64,000 nt of DNA, taken from assembly GCF_024170505.1 (NCBI RefSeq), contig NZ_JALJYG010000013.1, positions 1 to 64,000 on the forward strand, in the 5' to 3' direction. This DNA comes from Methanocalculus alkaliphilus (lineage in GTDB: Archaea; Halobacteriota; Methanomicrobia; Methanomicrobiales; Methanocorpusculaceae). The first letter of the stretch is position 1; each line of letters starts with the position of its first letter. The notes below the pieces were generated by a model that saw only the letters and a program-made list of their open reading frames with translations, searched no databases and had not been told where the DNA came from. This document shows positions 27,212-36,074 of the stretch, piece by piece. The translations under genes were made by a program, and so were the position numbers.

Positions 27212-28138
27212 ATGACCCTCTCTGCTGCCGGCATTCTGATGGTCGCCGACCGGATCACCATCCTCCTGATCCTGATCGCGGTCGGGTACCTGGCGTTCCG
27301 CCTCGGGATCCTCGATCGCCAGGCGACCCATAAACTCTCGCTCCTCCTCCTGCACGTGACGATCCCGGCATTGATCATCGTCTCGATGCAGATCCCGGCC
27401 TCCCCCGAGCTCCTCTCAGGTGCAGTCGTCTTCTGCCTCGCGATCGGGGTCTTCTATCTCCTTGCGGCCACGGTCGCCTATTGTGGAACTGTCCTCCTCA
27501 GGATGGAGGATCGGGAGCGGGGGGTCTTCTCCTTTGCCATCCTCTTTGGAAATGTCGGGTTCATGGGGTTTCCGATTGCAGAGGCGCTCTTTGGTGCTGC
27601 CTCCCTCTTCTATGTGGCACTCGGAAACCTGGTCTTCAATCTCCTCGTCTTCTCAGCAGGTATCGTGATGATGACCGGCAGGTACGACTTCAACCCCCGG
27701 CTGCTCATCAACCCCGGGATTGCGGCTTCCTATATCGGCCTGACCCTCTTCCTCCTCGGTCTCCGGATACCGTCGCCCCTCTTCGATGCGATGGAGATCA
27801 CCGGCAACCTGACGACCCCGCTTGCGATGATCATCGTCGGGTCACTCCTCGCCACATTCCCTGCAAAAGAGATGATCGGGGATCTGAAGGCATATCTCGC
27901 AACCGTCCTCCGGCTCATCGTCCTGCCGATTGCGACCTATCTCCTCCTTGCTCCGCTGATCGCTGATCCCCTCGTCCTCGGGGTGCTTGTCATCCTTGCC
28001 GCGATGCCGGTCGCCTCGACCACAGCCATCTTTGCCGAGATCTACGGGGGTGACGAGCGGTTCGCGTCCCGCCTCGTCTTCGTATCGATGATCTTTTCGA
28101 TCATCTCGATCCCCCTGATCGGTGCCTTCCTCATCTGA
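27212..28138 (+). CDS. AEC family transporter
   Basis: The 308-residue protein has about ten membrane helices with the auxin-efflux-carrier pattern: AVGYLAFRLGILDRQATHKLS at the start, then FAILFGNVGFMGFPIAEALFG, and a final MPVASTTAIFAEIYGG helix pair. Such carriers move organic anions, often malate-like. An internal ATG at 27239 is an alternative start. Converges with the coenzyme M operon, overlapping by 8 bases. Confidence 0.9.
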   Translation: MTLSAAGILMVADRITILLILIAVGYLAFRLGILDRQATHKLSLLLLHVTIPALIIVSMQIPASPELLSGAVVFCLAIGVFYLLAATVAYCGTVLLRMEDRERGVFSFAILFGNVGFMGFPIAEALFGAASLFYVALGNLVFNLLVFSAGIVMMTGRYDFNPRLLINPGIAASYIGLTLFLLGLRIPSPLFDAMEITGNLTTPLAMIIVGSLLATFPAKEMIGDLKAYLATVLRLIVLPIATYLLLAPLIADPLVLGVLVILAAMPVASTTAIFAEIYGGDERFASRLVFVSMIFSIISIPLIGAFLI

Positions 28139-29246
28139 GGACTGCCGCCTGCATGAACCGATCCCGGATCTCAACCGGTGAGAGGGGGATATTGGGGACA
28201 TCGGCATTCCCGGGCCTGATGATCGTATGGATAAAGCGTGGGCCGGGGGTGCGATCCTGAATTGCCGCAGTGAGGTCTGCCTTCGTCTGGACCTGCCGGG
28301 TATGGGAGATACCTGCTGCCTGCGCAATCTGTGCGAGATCGGTGGTTGCATACCCCTGCGTAATCTGGTTGCCGGTTGAGCCGAAGGTGCCATTATCGAG
28401 GCAGATGATCGTCAGGTTCTCCGGCCTCACCGATGCGATGACCGGAAGGATCGCTGTTCCAAGGAGCGAGCCGTCGCCATCGATGACCACAACCTCCCTC
28501 CCTGACCTGAGTGCCAGGCCAAGGCCGATGGGTGATGCCTGGGTGTAGGACCCGAGCATATAGAAGTTCTCAGCCCTGTCTCCGGTAGCATACAGCTCCT
28601 TTGAGGGGATACCTATATTCGAGACGGCTAGGGCATCCCCAAGATGTGGCGACAACGCCTGGATGGCATCATATCGTGTCATCTGCGGGGGTTTGATCCG
28701 ACCTCCCGGTATTTCAGGTATGATCCGGCTCCTGTCAGGGAAGACCGGGGGCGGGCAGGTTCCCCCGGCAAAGCATGCAGGCGAGACGAGGGCGACGGTC
28801 GGCCTCCCCTCTGCATATGAAAGCCGGATCATCTCCCGGATGGAGGGGAGATCCTCCTCCCCCATCACGGCTGCATACGGGATCCCGGCTCCCTTCAGTA
28901 TCTCCGGAAGCCGGGAGTTGAATGGAACCTGTGCCGGGATTGCTTCATTATATACTCCCCGCCAGCTTGCGATGATCGGGAGGGGGAGGGAATATGTACC
29001 GTGGAGCGAGAGGAGGGCATTGAGCATATTCCCAAGCCCCGAGCTCTGGATCACCATTGCAGGCCTCCCCCCGGCAAGATACACGCCTGCCGAGACGCCC
29101 ACTCCGTCCTCTTCACGGAGGAGGGGTATATGGGTAAATTCTTCGGTGATACGTGCACAGAGGAGGCTGGCACGGTCACAGGGGAGGTGGGGGATGGTGT
29201 CGATCCCCTCCTCCCTGAAGATCGTGAGGATCGCTTCTTCAAACAT
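28131..29246 (-). CDS. comDE: Sulfopyruvate decarboxylase, fused alpha and beta
   Basis: It converts sulfopyruvate to sulfoacetaldehyde in coenzyme M synthesis using thiamine diphosphate. The 371-residue product joins the alpha part (residues ~1-165, with the catalytic-glutamate region LREEDGVGVSAGVYLAGG) to the beta part with the cofactor motif GDGS (257-260) ending at N285. Other methanogens encode the two as comD and comE; a fused gene is typical of this order. Its start overlaps cysteate synthase by 8 bases. ATG 29246 gives the family start. Confidence 0.92.
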   Translation of the reverse strand: MFEEAILTIFREEGIDTIPHLPCDRASLLCARITEEFTHIPLLREEDGVGVSAGVYLAGGRPAMVIQSSGLGNMLNALLSLHGTYSLPLPIIASWRGVYNEAIPAQVPFNSRLPEILKGAGIPYAAVMGEEDLPSIREMIRLSYAEGRPTVALVSPACFAGGTCPPPVFPDRSRIIPEIPGGRIKPPQMTRYDAIQALSPHLGDALAVSNIGIPSKELYATGDRAENFYMLGSYTQASPIGLGLALRSGREVVVIDGDGSLLGTAILPVIASVRPENLTIICLDNGTFGSTGNQITQGYATTDLAQIAQAAGISHTRQVQTKADLTAAIQDRTPGPRFIHTIIRPGNADVPNIPLSPVEIRDRFMQAAVLR

Positions 29247-30480
29247 GGTTCTTCTCCATAATGCAGACCGGGAGCTCTCCCGGCCTGATGATCTCTGCCG
29301 GCGTGACCGGGTATTGCTTCGTGACCGAGCGATATCCCCCGCCGGTGATATTGAGGAGGATACAGTCATCCTCTCCAACGGCACCGCGTTCGACGGCTCT
29401 GAGGAGGGCGGCGCAGGCGACGGCTGCTGCCGGATCGGGATCGATCCCCTCGGTCTCGTCAAAGAGAGTACCGGCACGGGCAGCATCCCTGTTTGTGATC
29501 CCATACATCGCCCCGCCACATGCCCGGAGGGCATCGAAGAGGCCGCCGGGGATGGCATAGGGGGGGGTCCTGTTCGTCAGGACATCGGCCTCCACCGCTG
29601 CTATCGCCTCTTCCGGATGGGGCATATCGATCGCCGGGATGATCTCCCGCCTCCCCGCCTGCCATGCCGAAACAAGCGGGATGAAGGGGAGGTTCTGGGC
29701 GAGGTGGAGGGTGGGGAGGGTGTTTCCGTATCTCCCATCCCCGATGAGCCGCAGCGACGCCTCCCATGCCGCGATAGCGCCGGTTCCGCTCCCGACCGCC
29801 TGGAAATACTGATCAGGAATCTTCCCGATGGTGGCGGCGGCATCAAGGAAGACGGTCCCCATGCCGTCCCGGCGGGCGACATTCTTTGCGCCCCCCTCCG
29901 GCCGGTACCCGGGGAGTGATGCGATCCTGTCGGCGACCGCGATCGCGTCGGCATAATCGCCGTCAACGCCGATGAGGGTGATATCTTCGGCCGGCTCCGT
30001 CGTCCAGATCCGCTCAAGCGAACGGACGGGAACGACGATGACGACCGGGTCACCGGTCTCCCTGGCGACCTCGGCGAAGGCCCGGCCGGTATTTCCAGCC
30101 GATGCGAGGACGATGGTGCCGCCGCCGGTCTCCCGATGCCGGACGAGGGTCGGCCAGGCCTCCAGCTCCTTGAAGGAGCAGGTCGGAACATATGCCCCCC
30201 TCTCCGGTGCATGGCCGGTAAACCCTATCCAGAGATTGGAGAGGCCGGCTTCACGACCAAAGCCCTCTGATCGGAAGGTGACGGGGCCGGAGCGTGTGGA
30301 TGGGATCTCTTCAACCGGCAGCCATCCCGCATAGCGGAAGAGGCCGGGCTCATCCCTCAGAACCAGCTTTGTTTCAGGATAGATCGCCCTGAGGAGCGCT
30401 TTGTGGCCATGCGGGCAGGCGAGCTCCCCGGTATCCGGGAAGGTGCTCTGGCAGACCGGGCAGCTGAGGAGATGGGTCAT
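29239..30480 (-). CDS. Cysteate synthase
   Basis: This threonine synthase-like PLP enzyme makes cysteate from phosphoserine and sulfite, the first step of the phosphosulfolactate-independent route to coenzyme M. The 413-residue product has a Zn-ribbon-like start (CPVCQSTFPDTGELACPHGH), the PLP lysine in TCSFKELEAW (K104), and the phosphate loop ASAGNTGRAFA. It sits directly before sulfopyruvate decarboxylase, which supports the assignment over threonine synthase. It overlaps the marker 16 gene by 4 bases. Confidence 0.9.
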   Translation of the reverse strand: MTHLLSCPVCQSTFPDTGELACPHGHKALLRAIYPETKLVLRDEPGLFRYAGWLPVEEIPSTRSGPVTFRSEGFGREAGLSNLWIGFTGHAPERGAYVPTCSFKELEAWPTLVRHRETGGGTIVLASAGNTGRAFAEVARETGDPVVIVVPVRSLERIWTTEPAEDITLIGVDGDYADAIAVADRIASLPGYRPEGGAKNVARRDGMGTVFLDAAATIGKIPDQYFQAVGSGTGAIAAWEASLRLIGDGRYGNTLPTLHLAQNLPFIPLVSAWQAGRREIIPAIDMPHPEEAIAAVEADVLTNRTPPYAIPGGLFDALRACGGAMYGITNRDAARAGTLFDETEGIDPDPAAAVACAALLRAVERGAVGEDDCILLNITGGGYRSVTKQYPVTPAEIIRPGELPVCIMEKNHV

Positions 30481-31712
30481 GTTCCCTCCTTCAGAAGGAA
30501 TGTCCCTTCCTGTATCCGCTGTGCAAGCCTCCGGCAGAGCCGCTCTGCCCGTGTCCTCTCTGACTGCCTCAGGGTGATTGGGATCTGTTGTTCATTATAG
30601 GCGAGGGCTCCAAGCCGTATCCGGTACACCCCGGCCTCGCAGGCCGACTGGCAGGTCCCACAGGCGAGGCAGAGCTTCCGGTCAATGGTGAGATCTTCCC
30701 GGATCGCTGCTGCCGGGCAGAGTATCCGTGCATGGCAGGGGGAACAGGAGATGCAGCTATCGGGATGATGCCGGACGGCCCGGTCGGTCCCCTGCCAGAC
30801 GGCACCGTAATCGGCAGATCCACGGGGTTTCCTCTCTTCTATCCCGGCGATGGGGAGTGGGATGTCGCCGTCCCGGATCAGAAGGGCCTGCAGGGATGCA
30901 TCGTCAAGGACAGGAACTGCGGCAGCGACCGAGGTGAGGCATTCGGGTCCTTCGGATGTTGTAAACCCGCCCATCATCAGAGGATCCATCCCTTTCATAT
31001 CGGCGGAACAGGCGAGATTCGGGCGTTGTGGTGTTGATCGCGTCCCTTCGCCGAGGATGATCCCGTCGGCGCCATTGAGGTGGATCGGGGTCCCCGGTCC
31101 GAGGGACCTGAGGGAGGGATCATTCTCGACGGGATTAATCTCTCCGCATCCTGAGACCGAGATCTCCCTGCATGGGCCGTGGAGGCCGGTCACCGAGAAG
31201 ATCGTCGGGGTGACCCCCTCCTCCTCGGCAAGGAATGCGGTATAATTCCGGAATGCCGATCGTGTCGTATGGAGCCTCGCCGCCGGGCAGTCATCAAGGG
31301 TGATGGTGGCGGAATGGGTCTGGCCGTCAGCAAACGCCTCGCAATGGATCTCCCTGCCCGCTGCGAGATCCGCAAAGAGGTGGCCTCCCCCATATCGGCC
31401 GTCACGGTGGGCAGTGCCATAGACGATACAGTCGATGAGGCCGAGCCGTTCGTTGGGGCAGGGGCCTGGAAAGGCCGGGACCCCGTTGAGAGTACATGAT
31501 ACGGCACGCCTGAAGGTGCCGGGCGGGGCAACCGGGATCGAGAGAACTGCATAGGTCCCCGACATCACCCCGAATGTTGCGCAGGTGACGATATCGACCT
31601 CCTCTGCCGTGAACTCCTCCCCGTCCCGCAGGCGCCTCTTAAACTCATCTGCCGGGATGACAACGGCAGTGCCATCCCGTATCTTCCGGTTGATCTCTCC
31701 CGGTGTCTTCAC
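30477..31712 (-). CDS. Methanogenesis marker 16 metalloprotein (DUF39 plus two 4Fe-4S motifs)
   Basis: The 411-residue product has an N-terminal DUF39/COG1900 domain with the conserved cysteine in TCATFGVMSG (C44), and a C-terminal pair of ferredoxin motifs, CISCSPCHARILCP and CLACGTCQSACEAG. The DUF39 relatives insert sulfide into aspartate semialdehyde to make homocysteine. Here the gene lies between coenzyme M genes, so conversion of sulfoacetaldehyde to coenzyme M by the same chemistry is an attractive inference, not proof. Overlaps both neighbours by 4 bases. Confidence 0.88.
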   Translation of the reverse strand: MKTPGEINRKIRDGTAVVIPADEFKRRLRDGEEFTAEEVDIVTCATFGVMSGTYAVLSIPVAPPGTFRRAVSCTLNGVPAFPGPCPNERLGLIDCIVYGTAHRDGRYGGGHLFADLAAGREIHCEAFADGQTHSATITLDDCPAARLHTTRSAFRNYTAFLAEEEGVTPTIFSVTGLHGPCREISVSGCGEINPVENDPSLRSLGPGTPIHLNGADGIILGEGTRSTPQRPNLACSADMKGMDPLMMGGFTTSEGPECLTSVAAAVPVLDDASLQALLIRDGDIPLPIAGIEERKPRGSADYGAVWQGTDRAVRHHPDSCISCSPCHARILCPAAAIREDLTIDRKLCLACGTCQSACEAGVYRIRLGALAYNEQQIPITLRQSERTRAERLCRRLAQRIQEGTFLLKEGT

Positions 31713-32320
31713 AGTCCGATCCCCTCCACTCTGACATGCAGTCCGTCCTTCTCCATGATAACCATATTCACGACACCAGTGTGGGAGAGGCCCATCATGC
31801 AGAAGCCGGGGAGGAACCGCTGCCTGTTGCCGAATGCAGGCTCACGCCTGACCGTCTCTGCGATCCCCTCGAAGGCATGGACATGGTATGCCCGGATATC
31901 CTTCACCTCCCCGTTCCGTGCTTCAAGAGGGGTTGTGACATGGCAGGAGATGATCCCGCTCACCGGATCGGCAGCGGTTACCCTGAGGGCATGGGTAATC
32001 GGGCAGCCTGCACCCGCGGGCCTTCCGATGACGAGATCCCCCCTCTGTATCTCCCAGCGTTCAACGAGATCCGGGCGGAAGGGGACGATATCCTTCCGGG
32101 TCGACGGCTCCCCCGGAAACGGGTGAAGGACGAAGTCGTACTCAATCCCAAGAAGATCAACTCCTGAATACCCGGTTGGCGCCTGTTTCTTCTCTTCCCC
32201 ATAGAACGGGCAGTCGGTCCGCCTCTTTGCACCAGCGGCAAGGAGAGCAGAGAATGCCATGCAGGTCTTCGCACCGCAGAGGCCGCAGTCCTTGCCGGGT
32301 GGCTTCCATGCCATGGTCAC
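31709..32320 (-). CDS. Fe-S cluster protein, methanogen-conserved
   Basis: The 203-residue product opens with a four-cysteine 4Fe-4S domain (CGLCGAKTCMAFSALLAAG with a later CPFYG), the type found in corrinoid and acetyl-CoA pathway proteins, and continues as an uncharacterised domain (YDFVLHPFPGEPSTRKDIVP; MGLSHTGVVNMVI). It overlaps the GTPase and marker 16 genes by 4 bases each. Likely an accessory or carrier for cluster or metal delivery, by context only. Confidence 0.75.
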   Translation of the reverse strand: MTMAWKPPGKDCGLCGAKTCMAFSALLAAGAKRRTDCPFYGEEKKQAPTGYSGVDLLGIEYDFVLHPFPGEPSTRKDIVPFRPDLVERWEIQRGDLVIGRPAGAGCPITHALRVTAADPVSGIISCHVTTPLEARNGEVKDIRAYHVHAFEGIAETVRREPAFGNRQRFLPGFCMMGLSHTGVVNMVIMEKDGLHVRVEGIGL

Positions 32321-33021
32321 TCACCCCGGAAGAGGTTATCTGCATCATCCAGCCGGCGGATCACACCAAAGTGATGGTTCCAGCCGATCTCTTTCTTCCC
32401 GATACAGACGGTGCAGACACCAAGCGGCGGGTTGCCCCGGAGGGTGATTGCAGACTCTTCCGTTATCTCCTCCTGCCCCTCGATCATCTGCATCAGATAC
32501 CGCATCCCGGTGCCGACGATGGCATTCGTCTCGATGATCTCAACGTCGGGTGCGACATCCCGGATTCCCTCCCTGAAGACCTCCTTCTCGGCCTGGGAGA
32601 CGAGATCCACCCTGGTGACGACGGCGATATCCGCAAGGGCGATCATCGGTGCCATCTTATATGGGGAATGTGTTCCCGAGATGGCGGAGATGACCGCGAT
32701 TCCAAGTGACTGCGTTGTGTAGGGGGTGCAGCGGAGGCAGAGGCCCGCCGACTCGATGATCAGGTACTCTGCCCCCGCCTCCCTTGCCCATCCGAGGGCA
32801 TCGGCGGTGACCATGATCCCGGCATGGTCCGGGCAGAGATCGCCGGAGATGAGCTTCTTTGCCGGTATTCCAAACTCCGCTGCGATCTCTTCATCCTCTG
32901 TTGCATAGATGACATCGATCTTGAGATATGCTGCCGACCGCTCCGGGAGATTCCGAAGGATCTGCCTGATCACCGCGGTCTTCCCGGCAGAGGGAGGACC
33001 GGCAACGATGATGAGCTTCAT
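32317..33021 (-). CDS. CobW/UreG/HypB-type P-loop GTPase
   Basis: The 234-residue product has P-loop AGPPSAGKTAVI, the switch region SGDLCPDHAGIM, DIAVVTRVDLVS (base specificity), and two cysteine pairs, GLCLRCTP and LGVCTVC, that could bind metal. Relatives deliver metals to enzymes. It lies between an ABC-type ATPase and an Fe-S protein in a tightly overlapping operon, suggesting a maturation machine. Confidence 0.82.
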   Translation of the reverse strand: MKLIIVAGPPSAGKTAVIRQILRNLPERSAAYLKIDVIYATEDEEIAAEFGIPAKKLISGDLCPDHAGIMVTADALGWAREAGAEYLIIESAGLCLRCTPYTTQSLGIAVISAISGTHSPYKMAPMIALADIAVVTRVDLVSQAEKEVFREGIRDVAPDVEIIETNAIVGTGMRYLMQMIEGQEEITEESAITLRGNPPLGVCTVCIGKKEIGWNHHFGVIRRLDDADNLFRGE

Positions 33022-33785
33022 GTGGCGGCGACCTGTTCGCTGAGTATTTCTCCGGATCGGAGCCGTTCCCGGAGGGAGGAGAGATAGTTGTCCATCTCGG
33101 TGACCTGCCTGAGAATGGATGCCTCTGCGCCGTCAGGCTCAAGGACCGCACGGACCGAGCCGTTCCCCATCACGATCCGCCGATCCGAGAGGAGTGAGAC
33201 AAGGGGGTCATGGGTGACGAAGATGACGGTTGTTCCCGACTCTTTGAGGCATGAGATGACGCGGTCGCGGAAGATTCCGGCGTTTTCAATCTCATCAAGG
33301 AGGATGATCGGGGCATGCGAGATGACGACGGCATCAGCGATGAGAAGGGATCTCGTCTGGCCGCCGGAGAGGGAGGAGATGCGTGTCCCGGATCGGATCG
33401 GCTCGCCGGTGAACTGGTTGGCAAGGCGGATCGTCTCTTCGATCCGATCCCCCTCCTCGATCTTCCGGGCCCGGAGATGCATCGAGAGGAACTCATGCAC
33501 CGTCAGGTCGGCGAGGCATTTGGTCGTCTGGGTGATGAGGGCGACCGGCTTGCAGGAGGGGTCGCGGACGAACCGCTCCGGTGGCGGGGCACCATCGACG
33601 AGGATCTGTCGTCCGGTGACGGTATCGCCCTGTGCAAAGACCTCAATATCGTTGATGAAGGCACTCTTTCCGGAACCTGTCGGGCCGACGATGGCGATGG
33701 TGTCGCCTGGCCGGAGATGGAGGGCCTCAAACGGCTCGGGAGCACCGTTCCGATCATGGCCCGGGAGGATGGTGATCGTGTACAT
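33018..33785 (-). CDS. Soluble ABC-type ATPase, methanogen-conserved
   Basis: The 255-residue ATPase has Walker A GPTGSGKSAFIND, signature SSLSGGQTRSLLIADAV, Walker B PIILLDEIENAG and switch histidine VTHDPLVSLL. There is no partner permease, so it is unlikely to be a transporter; stand-alone ABC ATPases in methanogens act in enzyme activation (for example the methyl reductase activator A2). First gene of the six-gene operon. Confidence 0.82.
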   Translation of the reverse strand: MYTITILPGHDRNGAPEPFEALHLRPGDTIAIVGPTGSGKSAFINDIEVFAQGDTVTGRQILVDGAPPPERFVRDPSCKPVALITQTTKCLADLTVHEFLSMHLRARKIEEGDRIEETIRLANQFTGEPIRSGTRISSLSGGQTRSLLIADAVVISHAPIILLDEIENAGIFRDRVISCLKESGTTVIFVTHDPLVSLLSDRRIVMGNGSVRAVLEPDGAEASILRQVTEMDNYLSSLRERLRSGEILSEQVAAT

Positions 33786-33984: not shown

Positions 33985-34014
33985 CTAATCCAGATTAGTA
34001 CTAATCCGGATTAG
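33985..34014. promoter_or_regulatory. Two tandem 14-base palindromes at the ruvB 3' end
   Basis: CTAATCCAGATTAG (33985-33998) and CTAATCCGGATTAG (34001-34014) are separated by two bases; the second is a perfect palindrome, the first has one mismatch. The second overlaps the ruvB stop codon. Centre-to-centre spacing is 16 bases. This is the form of a paired dimer site for a regulator, here upstream of the coenzyme M operon, though a transcript-end role for ruvB is possible. Confidence 0.55.
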
Positions 34015-35006
34015 GATCTGCGCCCTGCAAGGAGATGCTCACTCGCCGCCTCTGTCGTCTCCCTCCCCTTCGGTGTCCGCTTCAGAAAGCCGATCCTGAT
34101 GAGATAGGGCTCATAGACCTCCTCGATGGTCCGGACCTCCTCCCCGATCGAGATGGCAATCGTCCGGACGCCGACCGGCCCGCCCGAGAAGTCCTCGGCA
34201 ACGACGGTGAGGATCCGGCGGTCGAGATCATCGAGGCCGAGGGGATCGATCCCGAGGATGCCAAGAGCAGCGTCTGCCGACTCCCGGGTGATGGTACCGT
34301 CCCCCCGGACCATCGCATAATCCCGGACACGCCTGAGGAGGCGGTTAGCGATTCGCGGTGTTCCACGGCTCCGTTGTGCGATCTCTTTTGCTCCCTCTTC
34401 GGTGATGGAGATCGAGAGGATTGATGCCGACCGTTTGACGATACTGAGGAGTTCATCGACCTCGTAGAGATTCAGCCGGAAGATCATTCCGAAGCGGTCA
34501 CGGAGGGGGGAGCCGAGGAGGCCGACCCGTGTCGTCGCTCCGATGAGGGTGAACCGGTCGAGGGGGAGCTGGATCGCCTTTGCCCCCGGTCCCTCCCCGA
34601 TCATTACGTCGATCATGTAATCCTCCATCGCCGGGTAGAGGATCTCCTCAACGACCGGGTTCAGCCGGTGAATCTCGTCGATGAAGAGGAGATCGCCATG
34701 GGTGAGGGCCGTCAGCTGGGCGGCCAGATCGCCGGGCTTGTCGATGACCGGCCCGGTGGTGCTCCGGATGGCCGCCCCCATCTCCCGTGCGATGATCTGG
34801 GCGAGGGTCGTCTTCCCAAGGCCGGGCGGGCCTGAGAAGAGGATGTGATCGAGGGTCTCGCCACGGAGCTTTGCTGCTTCGATAGCGATCCGGAGCGCCT
34901 CCTTGAGTTGTGGCTGGCCGACGAACTCGTCAAGACTCCCCGGCCGGATCGCGGGATCCTCGATATCATCCGTCATCCGGACTGGCGCTGTTATCCGGTC
35001 GGTCAT
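34011..35006 (-). CDS. ruvB: Holliday junction branch-migration ATPase RuvB
   Basis: RuvB is the hexameric motor that drives branch migration. The 331-residue product has [21 protein letters not shown]-loop [31 protein letters not shown], the sensor [19 protein letters not shown], and a winged-helix end. It is clearly of bacterial type and full length. It overlaps ruvA by 4 bases. Archaea generally use other proteins for this step, so the operon points to ancient transfer from bacteria. Confidence 0.97.
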
Positions 35007-35596
35007 TCTGATCGCTCCCTGAGGCGGGCGAGTGCCGCCTTGATGATCACCTGGACAGACTGGCGCTCCTCCGATTCGATGACGCTTTGGACTGCTTCAT
35101 CTGCCTCCCGCTCGGAGAAGCCGAGGGTGATAAGCGCAGAGATGGCATCTGATGCAGGCTGCGGAGAGGCAACCGCTCTGAGTGTTCCCGCCCGCTTCTT
35201 CATCGTCTCCTTCAGCTCGAGGATGAGCCGCTTTGCACTCTTTGGCCCGATCCCTGATATCCGGGTCAGGACCTTCTCATCCTCACCGATGATCGCCATA
35301 GCAAACTGGTCAAGGGATATCTGGGAGAGGATGTTTAATGCTATCTGTGGCCCGATTCCGGAGACGTTGATGAGAATGAGGAAGAGCTCCCGCTCGCCGG
35401 GATGGAGGAATCCATAGAGTGAGACAGCATCCTCCCGGACGACGAGATGGGTATGGAGCTTCACCGGAGTATTCATCTCCTCGATCTCCCGGAGATCCGG
35501 CTGGCTGACCCGGATGAGGTATCCGATTCCGCCGACATCGATGACGACGGTTCCCTCCCCGATGGAGGCGACTGAGCCGCTGATATGTGCAAACAT
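35003..35596 (-). CDS. ruvA: Holliday junction DNA-binding protein RuvA
   Basis: RuvA binds the four-way junction and loads RuvB. The 197-residue product starts [20 protein letters not shown], has the helix-hairpin-helix patches [14 protein letters not shown] and [17 protein letters not shown], and a C-terminal RuvB-binding domain ([16 protein letters not shown]). The ATG at 35596 is the family start; a longer upstream frame is the shadow of ruvC. Confidence 0.96.
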
Positions 35597-35600
35597 GGGT

Positions 35601-36074
35601 TCACCGAAGGGTATTGGTATGGCAGAGAGCGATGGCAAGGCCGTCGGCGGCATCGTCGGGGCGTGGGATCTCGTCCAGTCTGAGGAGCCGCCGTACCATA
35701 TCCTGCACCTGCTCCTTCTTTGCCCGGCCTGATCCCGAGACCGCCAGCTTGATCTGGTTCGGGGTATATTCGACGACCGGAATCCCCCGCTCCTCGATGG
35801 CAAGGAGGATCACCCCCCTCACCTCCGCAACCCTGATGGCTGATGTGACGTTCTTTGTGAAGAAGAGCTCCTCGACTGCGACTTCATCGGGGGCATGCTC
35901 TTCAATGAGGGCCGATATGCGGCGATAGATCTCATGGAGGCGGTGGCTCGTCGTCTGGCTGGTCCCGGAGGTCTCAATACAGCCGTTTTCAATATGCCGT
36001 ATGCTCCGGGTCCCCTTCTCGATGACACCGTACCCCACCCGGGCGATGCCGGGATCTATCCCGATGATGATCAT
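35601..36074 (-). CDS. ruvC: Holliday junction resolvase RuvC
   Basis: RuvC cuts the junction. The 157-residue product starts MIIIGIDPGIARVGYGVIEK with the first catalytic aspartate (D7), has the glutamate in PDEVAVEELFFTKN, and the final acidic pair in PRPDDAADGLAIALCH. Full length. It leads the ruvC-A-B operon, four bases before ruvA. Confidence 0.96.
   Translation of the reverse strand: MIIIGIDPGIARVGYGVIEKGTRSIRHIENGCIETSGTSQTTSHRLHEIYRRISALIEEHAPDEVAVEELFFTKNVTSAIRVAEVRGVILLAIEERGIPVVEYTPNQIKLAVSGSGRAKKEQVQDMVRRLLRLDEIPRPDDAADGLAIALCHTNTLR

What the first reader, a model, noticed from the sequence alone, without database searches (positions are those of the whole stretch)
28131..33785. 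Six-gene coenzyme M operon pairing marker 16 with an ATPase-GTPase-FeS trio
Six genes overlap by 4-8 bases each: ABC ATPase, metal-type GTPase, Fe-S protein, marker 16 (DUF39 plus two ferredoxin motifs), cysteate synthase and sulfopyruvate decarboxylase. DUF39 relatives are known to insert sulfide into an aldehyde (aspartate semialdehyde) to give a thiol. Sulfoacetaldehyde, the product of the last enzyme here, needs just such a step to become coenzyme M. The inference is that marker 16 performs it and that the trio matures its clusters.
Basis: partly seen in the sequence, partly recalled or inferred. Interest (0 to 1): 0.75.

Follow-up and report, generated by a model that had tools for sequence, protein, structure and literature searches.

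The report
Coenzyme M operon with mystery trio
This is an ordinary methanogen gene cluster for making coenzyme M, whose last enzyme (marker 16) was identified by others in 2019-2025; its three accompanying helper genes turn out to travel with the sulfite-using first step, even in bacteria that do not make methane, and so are probably not there to mature marker 16.

Summary
In detail: six minus-strand genes, 28131-33785, overlap by 4, 4, 4, 4 and 8 bases and encode an ABC ATPase, a HypB/UreG-like GTPase, a PF04060 Fe-S protein (COG2000), marker 16, cysteate synthase (CS) and a fused ComDE. The host is a Methanocalculus relative. That marker 16 makes CoM is already published (PMC12068725: ComF in M. 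acetivorans), and the same paper notes the trio beside CoM genes, role unknown. The second inference, that the trio matures marker 16, is not supported. M. acetivorans has a working ComF and no COG2000 protein. Methanoregula-type loci keep trio-CS-ComDE without ComF. A divergent trio in Methanosarcinia sits between CS and ComDE while ComF lies on the opposite strand. Clostridia carry the intact trio behind ComA or ComA-ComB, with no ComF nearby. In 99 Methanomicrobia the trio tracks CS (phi 0.82) better than ComF (0.68); in Bacillota 15 of 16 trio genomes have ComA, against 61 of 184 others. CS and ComA are unrelated enzymes whose common substrate is sulfite. My best reading is that the trio is an NTP-driven metalloprotein module serving sulfite-dependent C-S bond formation, perhaps supplying sulfite. 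That mechanism is inferred and untested.

The parts
33018..33785 (-). ABC-type ATPase, 255 aa, no membrane partner gene adjacent; trio gene 1
   Evidence: PF00005 2.3e-14; Walker A, LSGGQ, Walker B and H-loop conserved in alignment A1
32317..33021 (-). HypB/UreG-class GTPase, 234 aa; invariant D-x-CPDH, CxxC (C95/C98), second CxxC (C203/C206) and H217; trio gene 2
   Evidence: PF02492 9.1e-14; UreG 4hi0, HypB 2hf8
31709..32320 (-). COG2000-type Fe-S protein, 203 aa: CFeSP-like N-terminal 4Fe-4S motif plus a beta domain with invariant C106, H110, C174, H180; trio gene 3
   Evidence: (PF04060 6.4e-10); COG2000 name from PMC12068725
30477..31712 (-). Methanogenesis marker 16 = ComF, coenzyme M synthase, 411 aa
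   Evidence: TIGR03287 509 bits, cut-off 364; PF01837; function from PMC12068725
29239..30480 (-). Cysteate synthase, 413 aa
   Evidence: TIGR03844 604 bits, cut-off 325
28131..29246 (-). Sulfopyruvate decarboxylase, ComD and ComE fused, 371 aa; start ATG at 29246
   Evidence: TIGR03846 and TIGR03845 above cut-off

Best explanation
The cluster is a CS-type (phosphoserine route) coenzyme M operon. CS makes cysteate from phosphoserine and sulfite, a housekeeping aminotransferase elsewhere gives sulfopyruvate, ComDE gives sulfoacetaldehyde, and marker 16 (ComF) replaces the aldehyde by a thiol. The ATPase-GTPase-Fe-S trio is a separate three-protein module that serves the sulfite-consuming C-S bond-forming entry step (CS here, ComA elsewhere) rather than maturing ComF. 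Most likely the GTPase, a HypB/UreG-type metallochaperone, loads a second metal site (C106/H110/C174/H180) in the Fe-S protein, the ATPase powers or gates this, and the Fe-S protein then produces or hands over sulfite from reduced sulfur so that toxic free sulfite does not accumulate. Shown here: the operon, the family identities, the association with the sulfite step, the independence from ComF, the invariant Cys/His. Known from others: the ComF function. Inferred: the metal loading, the role of ATP, sulfite as product.
For: ComF: PMC12068725. Trio is one unit: Fe-S and GTPase sets identical, 68 of 68 genomes. Trio follows CS better than ComF in 99 Methanomicrobia: phi 0.82 against 0.68; 7 genomes have CS+ComDE+trio without ComF (loci). 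A divergent trio clade in Methanosarcinia is placed CS-ATPase-GTPase-FeS, then ComD-ComE in several, with ComF on the opposite strand or outside the locus. M. acetivorans has CS-ComDE-ComF and no COG2000 hit at E<=0.001 (identity by 5,751,492-bp length and MA3297/MA3298 coordinates). Clostridia: ComA-ComB-trio in L164 and L166, ComA-trio in L155. Bacillota: ComA in 15/16 trio genomes and 61/184 others, p=2e-6; 7/7 among genomes not brought in by trio loci or the small class search, p=6e-4. ComA-type archaeon AUK006 has trio-ComF-ComA-ComB-(sulfolactate dehydrogenase)-ComDE. Sulfur genes near some trios: TauE/SafE (L110, L162), SsuA-like (L091, L110), ThiF, LarE. Eight invariant Cys/His in the Fe-S protein across 31 sequences.
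Against: In Methanosarcina-type genomes a second trio travels with a second ComF copy and no CS or ComDE nearby (L118, L313-L315). One Auribacterota contig has the trio genes inside a pseudaminate-type sugar cluster with no ComA found in that genome, and its SDR is not a UDP-sulfoquinovose synthase. Two further bacterial trio genomes (G102, G105) lack a ComA hit. M. acetivorans and three Methanomicrobia genomes have CS without the trio, so it is not needed for CS. A test that trio genomes lack the sulfite-forming AprA was uninformative (0/15 against 5/61, p=0.58). Clostridia and AUK006 may represent one evolutionary association with ComA. Fisher tests ignore relatedness. No metal, cluster or activity was measured.
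Confidence: 0.45

Rival explanations
1. One reading: the trio assembles or repairs the Fe-S clusters of marker 16 (ComF).
For: Directly upstream of ComF with 4-base overlaps here and adjacent to it in most Methanomicrobiales; a second trio plus second ComF sit together in Methanosarcina without CS or ComDE nearby; trio and ComF co-occur in 57 of 99 Methanomicrobia genomes.
Against: M. acetivorans ComF works with no COG2000 protein; 15 of 18 Methanosarcinia genomes without any COG2000 match have ComF; E. coli expressing MJ1681 makes CoM (PMC12068725); trio without ComF in 11 Methanomicrobia genomes and ComF-less trio loci in Clostridia.
Confidence: 0.15
2. The trio is a metal (for example nickel) insertion system for some other enzyme that happens to be co-regulated with sulfonate synthesis.
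For: GTPase is of the HypB/UreG class; a paralogous trio in Methanoregula-type genomes has a His/Asp-rich C-terminal tail on the Fe-S protein; trio copies occur away from any CoM gene.
Against: No recurrent client metalloenzyme seen beside the trio; the recurrent partners CS and ComA belong to a PLP enzyme family and a family without a known Fe-S or Ni cofactor (family knowledge).
Confidence: 0.2
3. The trio is itself an alternative CoM synthase that takes over the last step where ComF is lost.
For: Seven Methanomicrobia genomes and 12 named loci keep trio plus CS (usually ComDE) and lack ComF.
Against: Clostridial trio loci have neither ComDE nor ComF, so no sulfoacetaldehyde route is visible there; all ComF-less Methanomicrobia genomes have an L-ASST-type COG1900 protein that could do the step (PMC12068725).
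Confidence: 0.07
4. The trio acts in sensing, uptake or salvage of sulfonates (CoM, taurine) rather than in sulfite supply.
For: An SsuA-like protein without obvious signal peptide, with an HTH protein, lies divergent to the trio in several Methanoregula-type loci, and an SsuA-like protein lies beside a trio-linked ComF in L313.
Against: The ATPase has no permease partner; conserved Cys/His and the CFeSP-like domain point to redox or metal chemistry.
Confidence: 0.13

Closest known systems
M. acetivorans CS-ComDE-MMP16 locus (MA3297-MA3299), PMC12068725
   Same: Same three pathway enzymes; ComF function shown genetically
   Different: No COG2000 protein in that genome; ComF lies on the opposite strand and is not in one operon
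CoM loci with ATPase, Ni-GTPase and COG2000 genes in Fig 2B legend of PMC12068725
   Same: Same trio beside the same pathway genes, in isolated methanogens
   Different: That legend leaves the role unknown and does not describe ComF-less trio loci or bacterial ComA-ComB-trio loci
HypB / UreG nickel GTPases
   Same: Same P-loop GTPase class, conserved Cys/His metal-type motifs
   Different: Below the HypB and UreG family cut-offs (56.5 and 31.7 bits against 121 and 204); CxxC in place of the usual CP/CPH motif; fixed partners are an ABC ATPase and a COG2000 protein
Corrinoid Fe-S protein (CFeSP) large subunit N-terminal 4Fe-4S domain
   Same: Same CxxCGxxxC...C domain; Foldseek local match to 4c1n over 38 columns, 42% identity
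   Different: The rest of the protein is a beta domain with no match in the PDB at E<=0.001; no corrinoid domain
L-aspartate semialdehyde sulfurtransferase (COG1900a; MA1821-1822)
   Same: Same PF01837 family as marker 16 and analogous aldehyde-to-thiol reaction
   Different: Separate subfamily, below the TIGR03287 cut-off; essential Cys54 has no essential counterpart in ComF (PMC12068725)

Membership tests
Marker 16 / ComF (TIGR03287) | Score above the curated family cut-off | tested here: met
   509.2 bits against 363.95
Marker 16 / ComF (TIGR03287) | COG1900/PF01837 domain plus C-terminal ferredoxin motifs | tested here: met
   PF01837 2.1e-88 over residues 16-407; two Cys motifs, one with unusual spacing
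Marker 16 / ComF (TIGR03287) | Converts sulfoacetaldehyde to CoM | not testable with these tools
   Shown for relatives in PMC12068725
Phosphoserine-type CoM pathway | Cysteate synthase and ComDE present together | tested here: met
   TIGR03844, TIGR03845 and TIGR03846 all above cut-off
HypB nickel-incorporation GTPase | Score above the HypB cut-off | tested here: not met
   56.5 bits against 121.2
UreG | Score above the UreG cut-off | tested here: not met
   31.7 bits against 204.2
CODH/ACS gamma (CFeSP large subunit) | Full-length match including the TIM-barrel and corrinoid domains | tested here: not met
   Only residues 8-46 match
Fe-S maturase dedicated to marker 16 | Trio occurs wherever marker 16 occurs | tested here: not met
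   4 of 61 ComF genomes in Methanomicrobia and at least 15 in Methanosarcinia lack it
Fe-S maturase dedicated to marker 16 | Trio absent where marker 16 is absent | tested here: not met
   11 Methanomicrobia genomes; trio loci without ComF in Clostridia
Sulfite-step module (proposed) | CS or ComA present in trio genomes | tested here: inconclusive
   Methanomicrobia 63/68; Bacillota sample 15/16; exceptions include one Auribacterota MAG and G102, and a trio-ComF unit without nearby CS in Methanosarcina

The most novel reading that the evidence does not exclude
The ATPase-GTPase-COG2000 trio is a previously unrecognised, NTP-driven metalloprotein system that makes or channels sulfite under anaerobic, sulfidic conditions for C-S bond formation, shared by methanogens (for coenzyme M) and by Clostridia (for sulfolactate).
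Probability: 0.25. Interest if true: 0.8.

Novelty: new member of a known kind. Interest (0 to 1): 0.5.

Why it matters
Coenzyme M is needed for all biological methane formation, and its synthesis starts with sulfite, which damages the methanogenic machinery (PMC10322725). I found no paper in the held library that says where this sulfite comes from in sulfide-fed cells. The comparative result moves the uncharacterised trio from the last to the first step of the pathway and names bacteria in which it can be studied without methanogenesis, so a long-standing gap becomes testable with simple genetics.

Tried and rejected
Rfam and tRNA scans: nothing. Two AlphaFold models of the Fe-S protein (pLDDT 82 and 89) searched against the PDB: no match for the beta domain, only the CFeSP 4Fe-4S domain. 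SDR between trio genes in the Auribacterota contig tested as a UDP-sulfoquinovose synthase: it is a general epimerase/dehydratase. AprA as an alternative sulfite source: no significant difference. The sigma-70/terminator scan found about as many sites as shuffles and does not cover archaeal promoters. Paper searches for the sulfite source in CoM synthesis gave nothing direct. Methanobacteriota in the GTDB sense (Methanococcales, Methanobacteriales) could not be sampled, because no genome handle of that phylum was reached. The trio ATPase was not searched genome-wide because ABC ATPases are too numerous; it was checked at the loci instead. ComC, ComDE and ComF were not searched genome-wide in Clostridia, only at the loci read.
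Full report
OBSERVATION. The six genes are present exactly as described: minus strand, 33785 down to 28131, overlaps 4, 4, 4, 4 and 8 bases. Family searches identify an ABC ATPase, a cobW/HypB/UreG-type GTPase, a PF04060 Fe-S protein, marker 16 (TIGR03287, 509 bits, cut-off 364), cysteate synthase (TIGR03844) and a fused ComDE (TIGR03845 and TIGR03846). The genome (G000, 2.09 Mb, 37 contigs) is closest to Methanocalculus chunghsingensis (94-98% protein identity for trio and ComF). The same order recurs in many Methanomicrobiales loci, so the operon is real and conserved.

MARKER 16. PMC12068725 (PLoS Genet 2025) shows that an M. acetivorans marker 16 deletion has a CoM-dependent growth defect, is a CoM auxotroph without sulfide, and is complemented in trans; it cites earlier work in which E. 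coli carrying MJ1681 forms CoM. It also reports that the conserved cysteines C200 and C202 are not essential, that L-ASST may compensate, and, in the Fig 2B legend, that an ATPase, a Ni-binding GTPase and a COG2000 Fe-S protein often lie beside CoM genes with unknown role. What was open is the role of the trio.

DOES THE TRIO BELONG TO MARKER 16? Four lines of evidence say no, or not specifically. (1) In 99 Methanomicrobia genomes (tabulated) Fe-S protein and GTPase occur in exactly the same 68 genomes. Trio and ComF: both 57, trio only 11, ComF only 4 (phi 0.68). Trio and CS: both 63, trio only 5, CS only 3 (phi 0.82); one of the five, G074, has its locus cut by a contig end. Seven genomes keep CS, ComDE and trio but no ComF. 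(2) Loci show ComF cleanly missing: ATPase-GTPase-FeS-CS-ComDE in Methanoregula and Methanogenium loci (L102, L103, L106, L111-L114, L124, L140, L148, L149; also L137, without a ComDE hit in the contig). G056 has two loci, one trio-CS-ComDE and one ComF-ComDE. (3) In 120 Methanosarcinia genomes ComF passes the cut-off in 103, yet 18 genomes have no COG2000 match and 15 of these have ComF. One is M. acetivorans C2A: contig length 5,751,492, CS and ComDE at the published MA3297 and MA3298 coordinates. A divergent trio (ATPase ~45%, GTPase ~41%, Fe-S ~34% identity) is placed directly after CS and in several loci before ComD and ComE, with ComF on the opposite strand or outside the locus (L308-L310, L312, L316-L318, L320-L322). 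(4) The intact trio exists in Clostridia at loci without ComF, CS or ComDE.

THE SULFITE STEP. In Clostridia L164 and L166 the order is ComA-ComB-ATPase-GTPase-FeS; in L155 it is ComA-trio (ComA PF02679 3.9e-88, ComB PF04029 6.1e-70). In 200 Bacillota genomes, 16 have the Fe-S protein and 15 of those have ComA, against 61 of the other 184 (p=2e-6); leaving out genomes that entered through trio loci or the small class search it is 7 of 7 (p=6e-4). The archaeal MAG AUK006 has trio-ComF-ComA-ComB-sulfolactate dehydrogenase-ComDE. CS is a PLP enzyme derived from threonine synthase and ComA belongs to an unrelated family; what they share is sulfite as substrate (established pathway knowledge; PMC12713407, for CS). 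In a concatenated GTPase/Fe-S tree the divergent Methanosarcinia clade is separated by a long branch, and adjacency to CS holds in both clades with different gene order; the Clostridia, Auribacterota and AUK006 form one clade (support 80-98), so the ComA link may be a single event. Nearby sulfur genes in some loci (TauE/SafE in L110 and L162, SsuA-like proteins, ThiF, LarE) fit but do not prove the reading.

ANATOMY OF THE TRIO. Across 31 Fe-S proteins, C12, C15, C20, C37 (the 4Fe-4S motif) and C106, H110, C174, H180 are invariant. Across 13 GTPases D61, C63-P-D-H66, C95, C98, C203, C206 and H217 are invariant. By sequence the GTPase is nearest to UreG and HypB but far below their cut-offs. 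The Fe-S model (pLDDT 89) is a CFeSP-like cluster domain plus a beta domain with no PDB match. This suggests a metalloprotein with a dedicated chaperone GTPase and ATPase. Which metal, and what reaction, is not known.

WHAT SPEAKS AGAINST MY READING. A second trio with a second ComF and no CS or ComDE nearby occurs in Methanosarcina-type genomes (L118, L313-L315). An Auribacterota contig has the trio genes in a pseudaminate-type cluster, with a general SDR and no ComA in the genome. Two other bacterial trio genomes lack ComA. CS works without trio in M. acetivorans. The AprA test was uninformative. Relatedness was not corrected for. Methanobacteriota were not sampled.

VERDICT. Operon confirmed; marker 16 part already known; maturation part not supported; best current hypothesis is a module for the sulfite-dependent entry step (confidence about 0.45), with sulfite production or delivery as the more specific and less certain form (0.25).

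Noticed in passing
window 34011-36074 (-): Bacterial-type RuvB and RuvC genes (with a RuvA-like ORF between) directly upstream of the CoM operon in an archaeon; archaea usually use Hjc instead.
   Followed up: partly
L090:8882-10232 (G001): Deletion scar: ATPase pieces and the first half of the GTPase run into the C-terminal part of ComDE; Fe-S, ComF, CS and ComD are lost, as if the operon was removed in one event in a likely CoM auxotroph.
   Followed up: partly
L092:8264-11873 (G065): Decaying operon: GTPase with three in-frame TGA, CS broken by stops, no ATPase detected, ComF and ComDE intact (MAG of about 400 contigs).
   Followed up: partly
L077:8211-10546, L078:8086-10417 and relatives: Paralogous trio in Methanoregula-type genomes, away from CoM genes; the Fe-S protein has a C-terminal extension ending in a His/Asp-rich tail (HGHARHGHDDDD), suggestive of metal binding.
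   Followed up: partly
L091:6101-7534, L094:5853-7365, L096:6484-7977, L110:6915-7874: SsuA-family-like protein without obvious signal peptide (with an HTH protein in the first three), divergent to the trio; possible sulfonate-responsive regulator. HTH alone also in L213-L215.
   Followed up: partly
L163:7037-17130: Auribacterota MAG contig with trio genes interleaved in a PseB-PseC-PseG-type nonulosonate cluster.
   Followed up: partly
L082:8099-14567: Lone trio beside ThiF, a B12-binding corrinoid-type protein, a methyltransferase-like protein and an ASKHA-type corrinoid activator-like protein (judged by reading the sequences).
   Followed up: no
L137, L139, L171, L173: MAG contigs labelled Nanohalarchaeota, Nitrospirae, Methanomassiliicoccaceae and Bacilli carry Methanomicrobiales- or Methanosarcina-like CoM operons; probably binning errors.
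   Followed up: no
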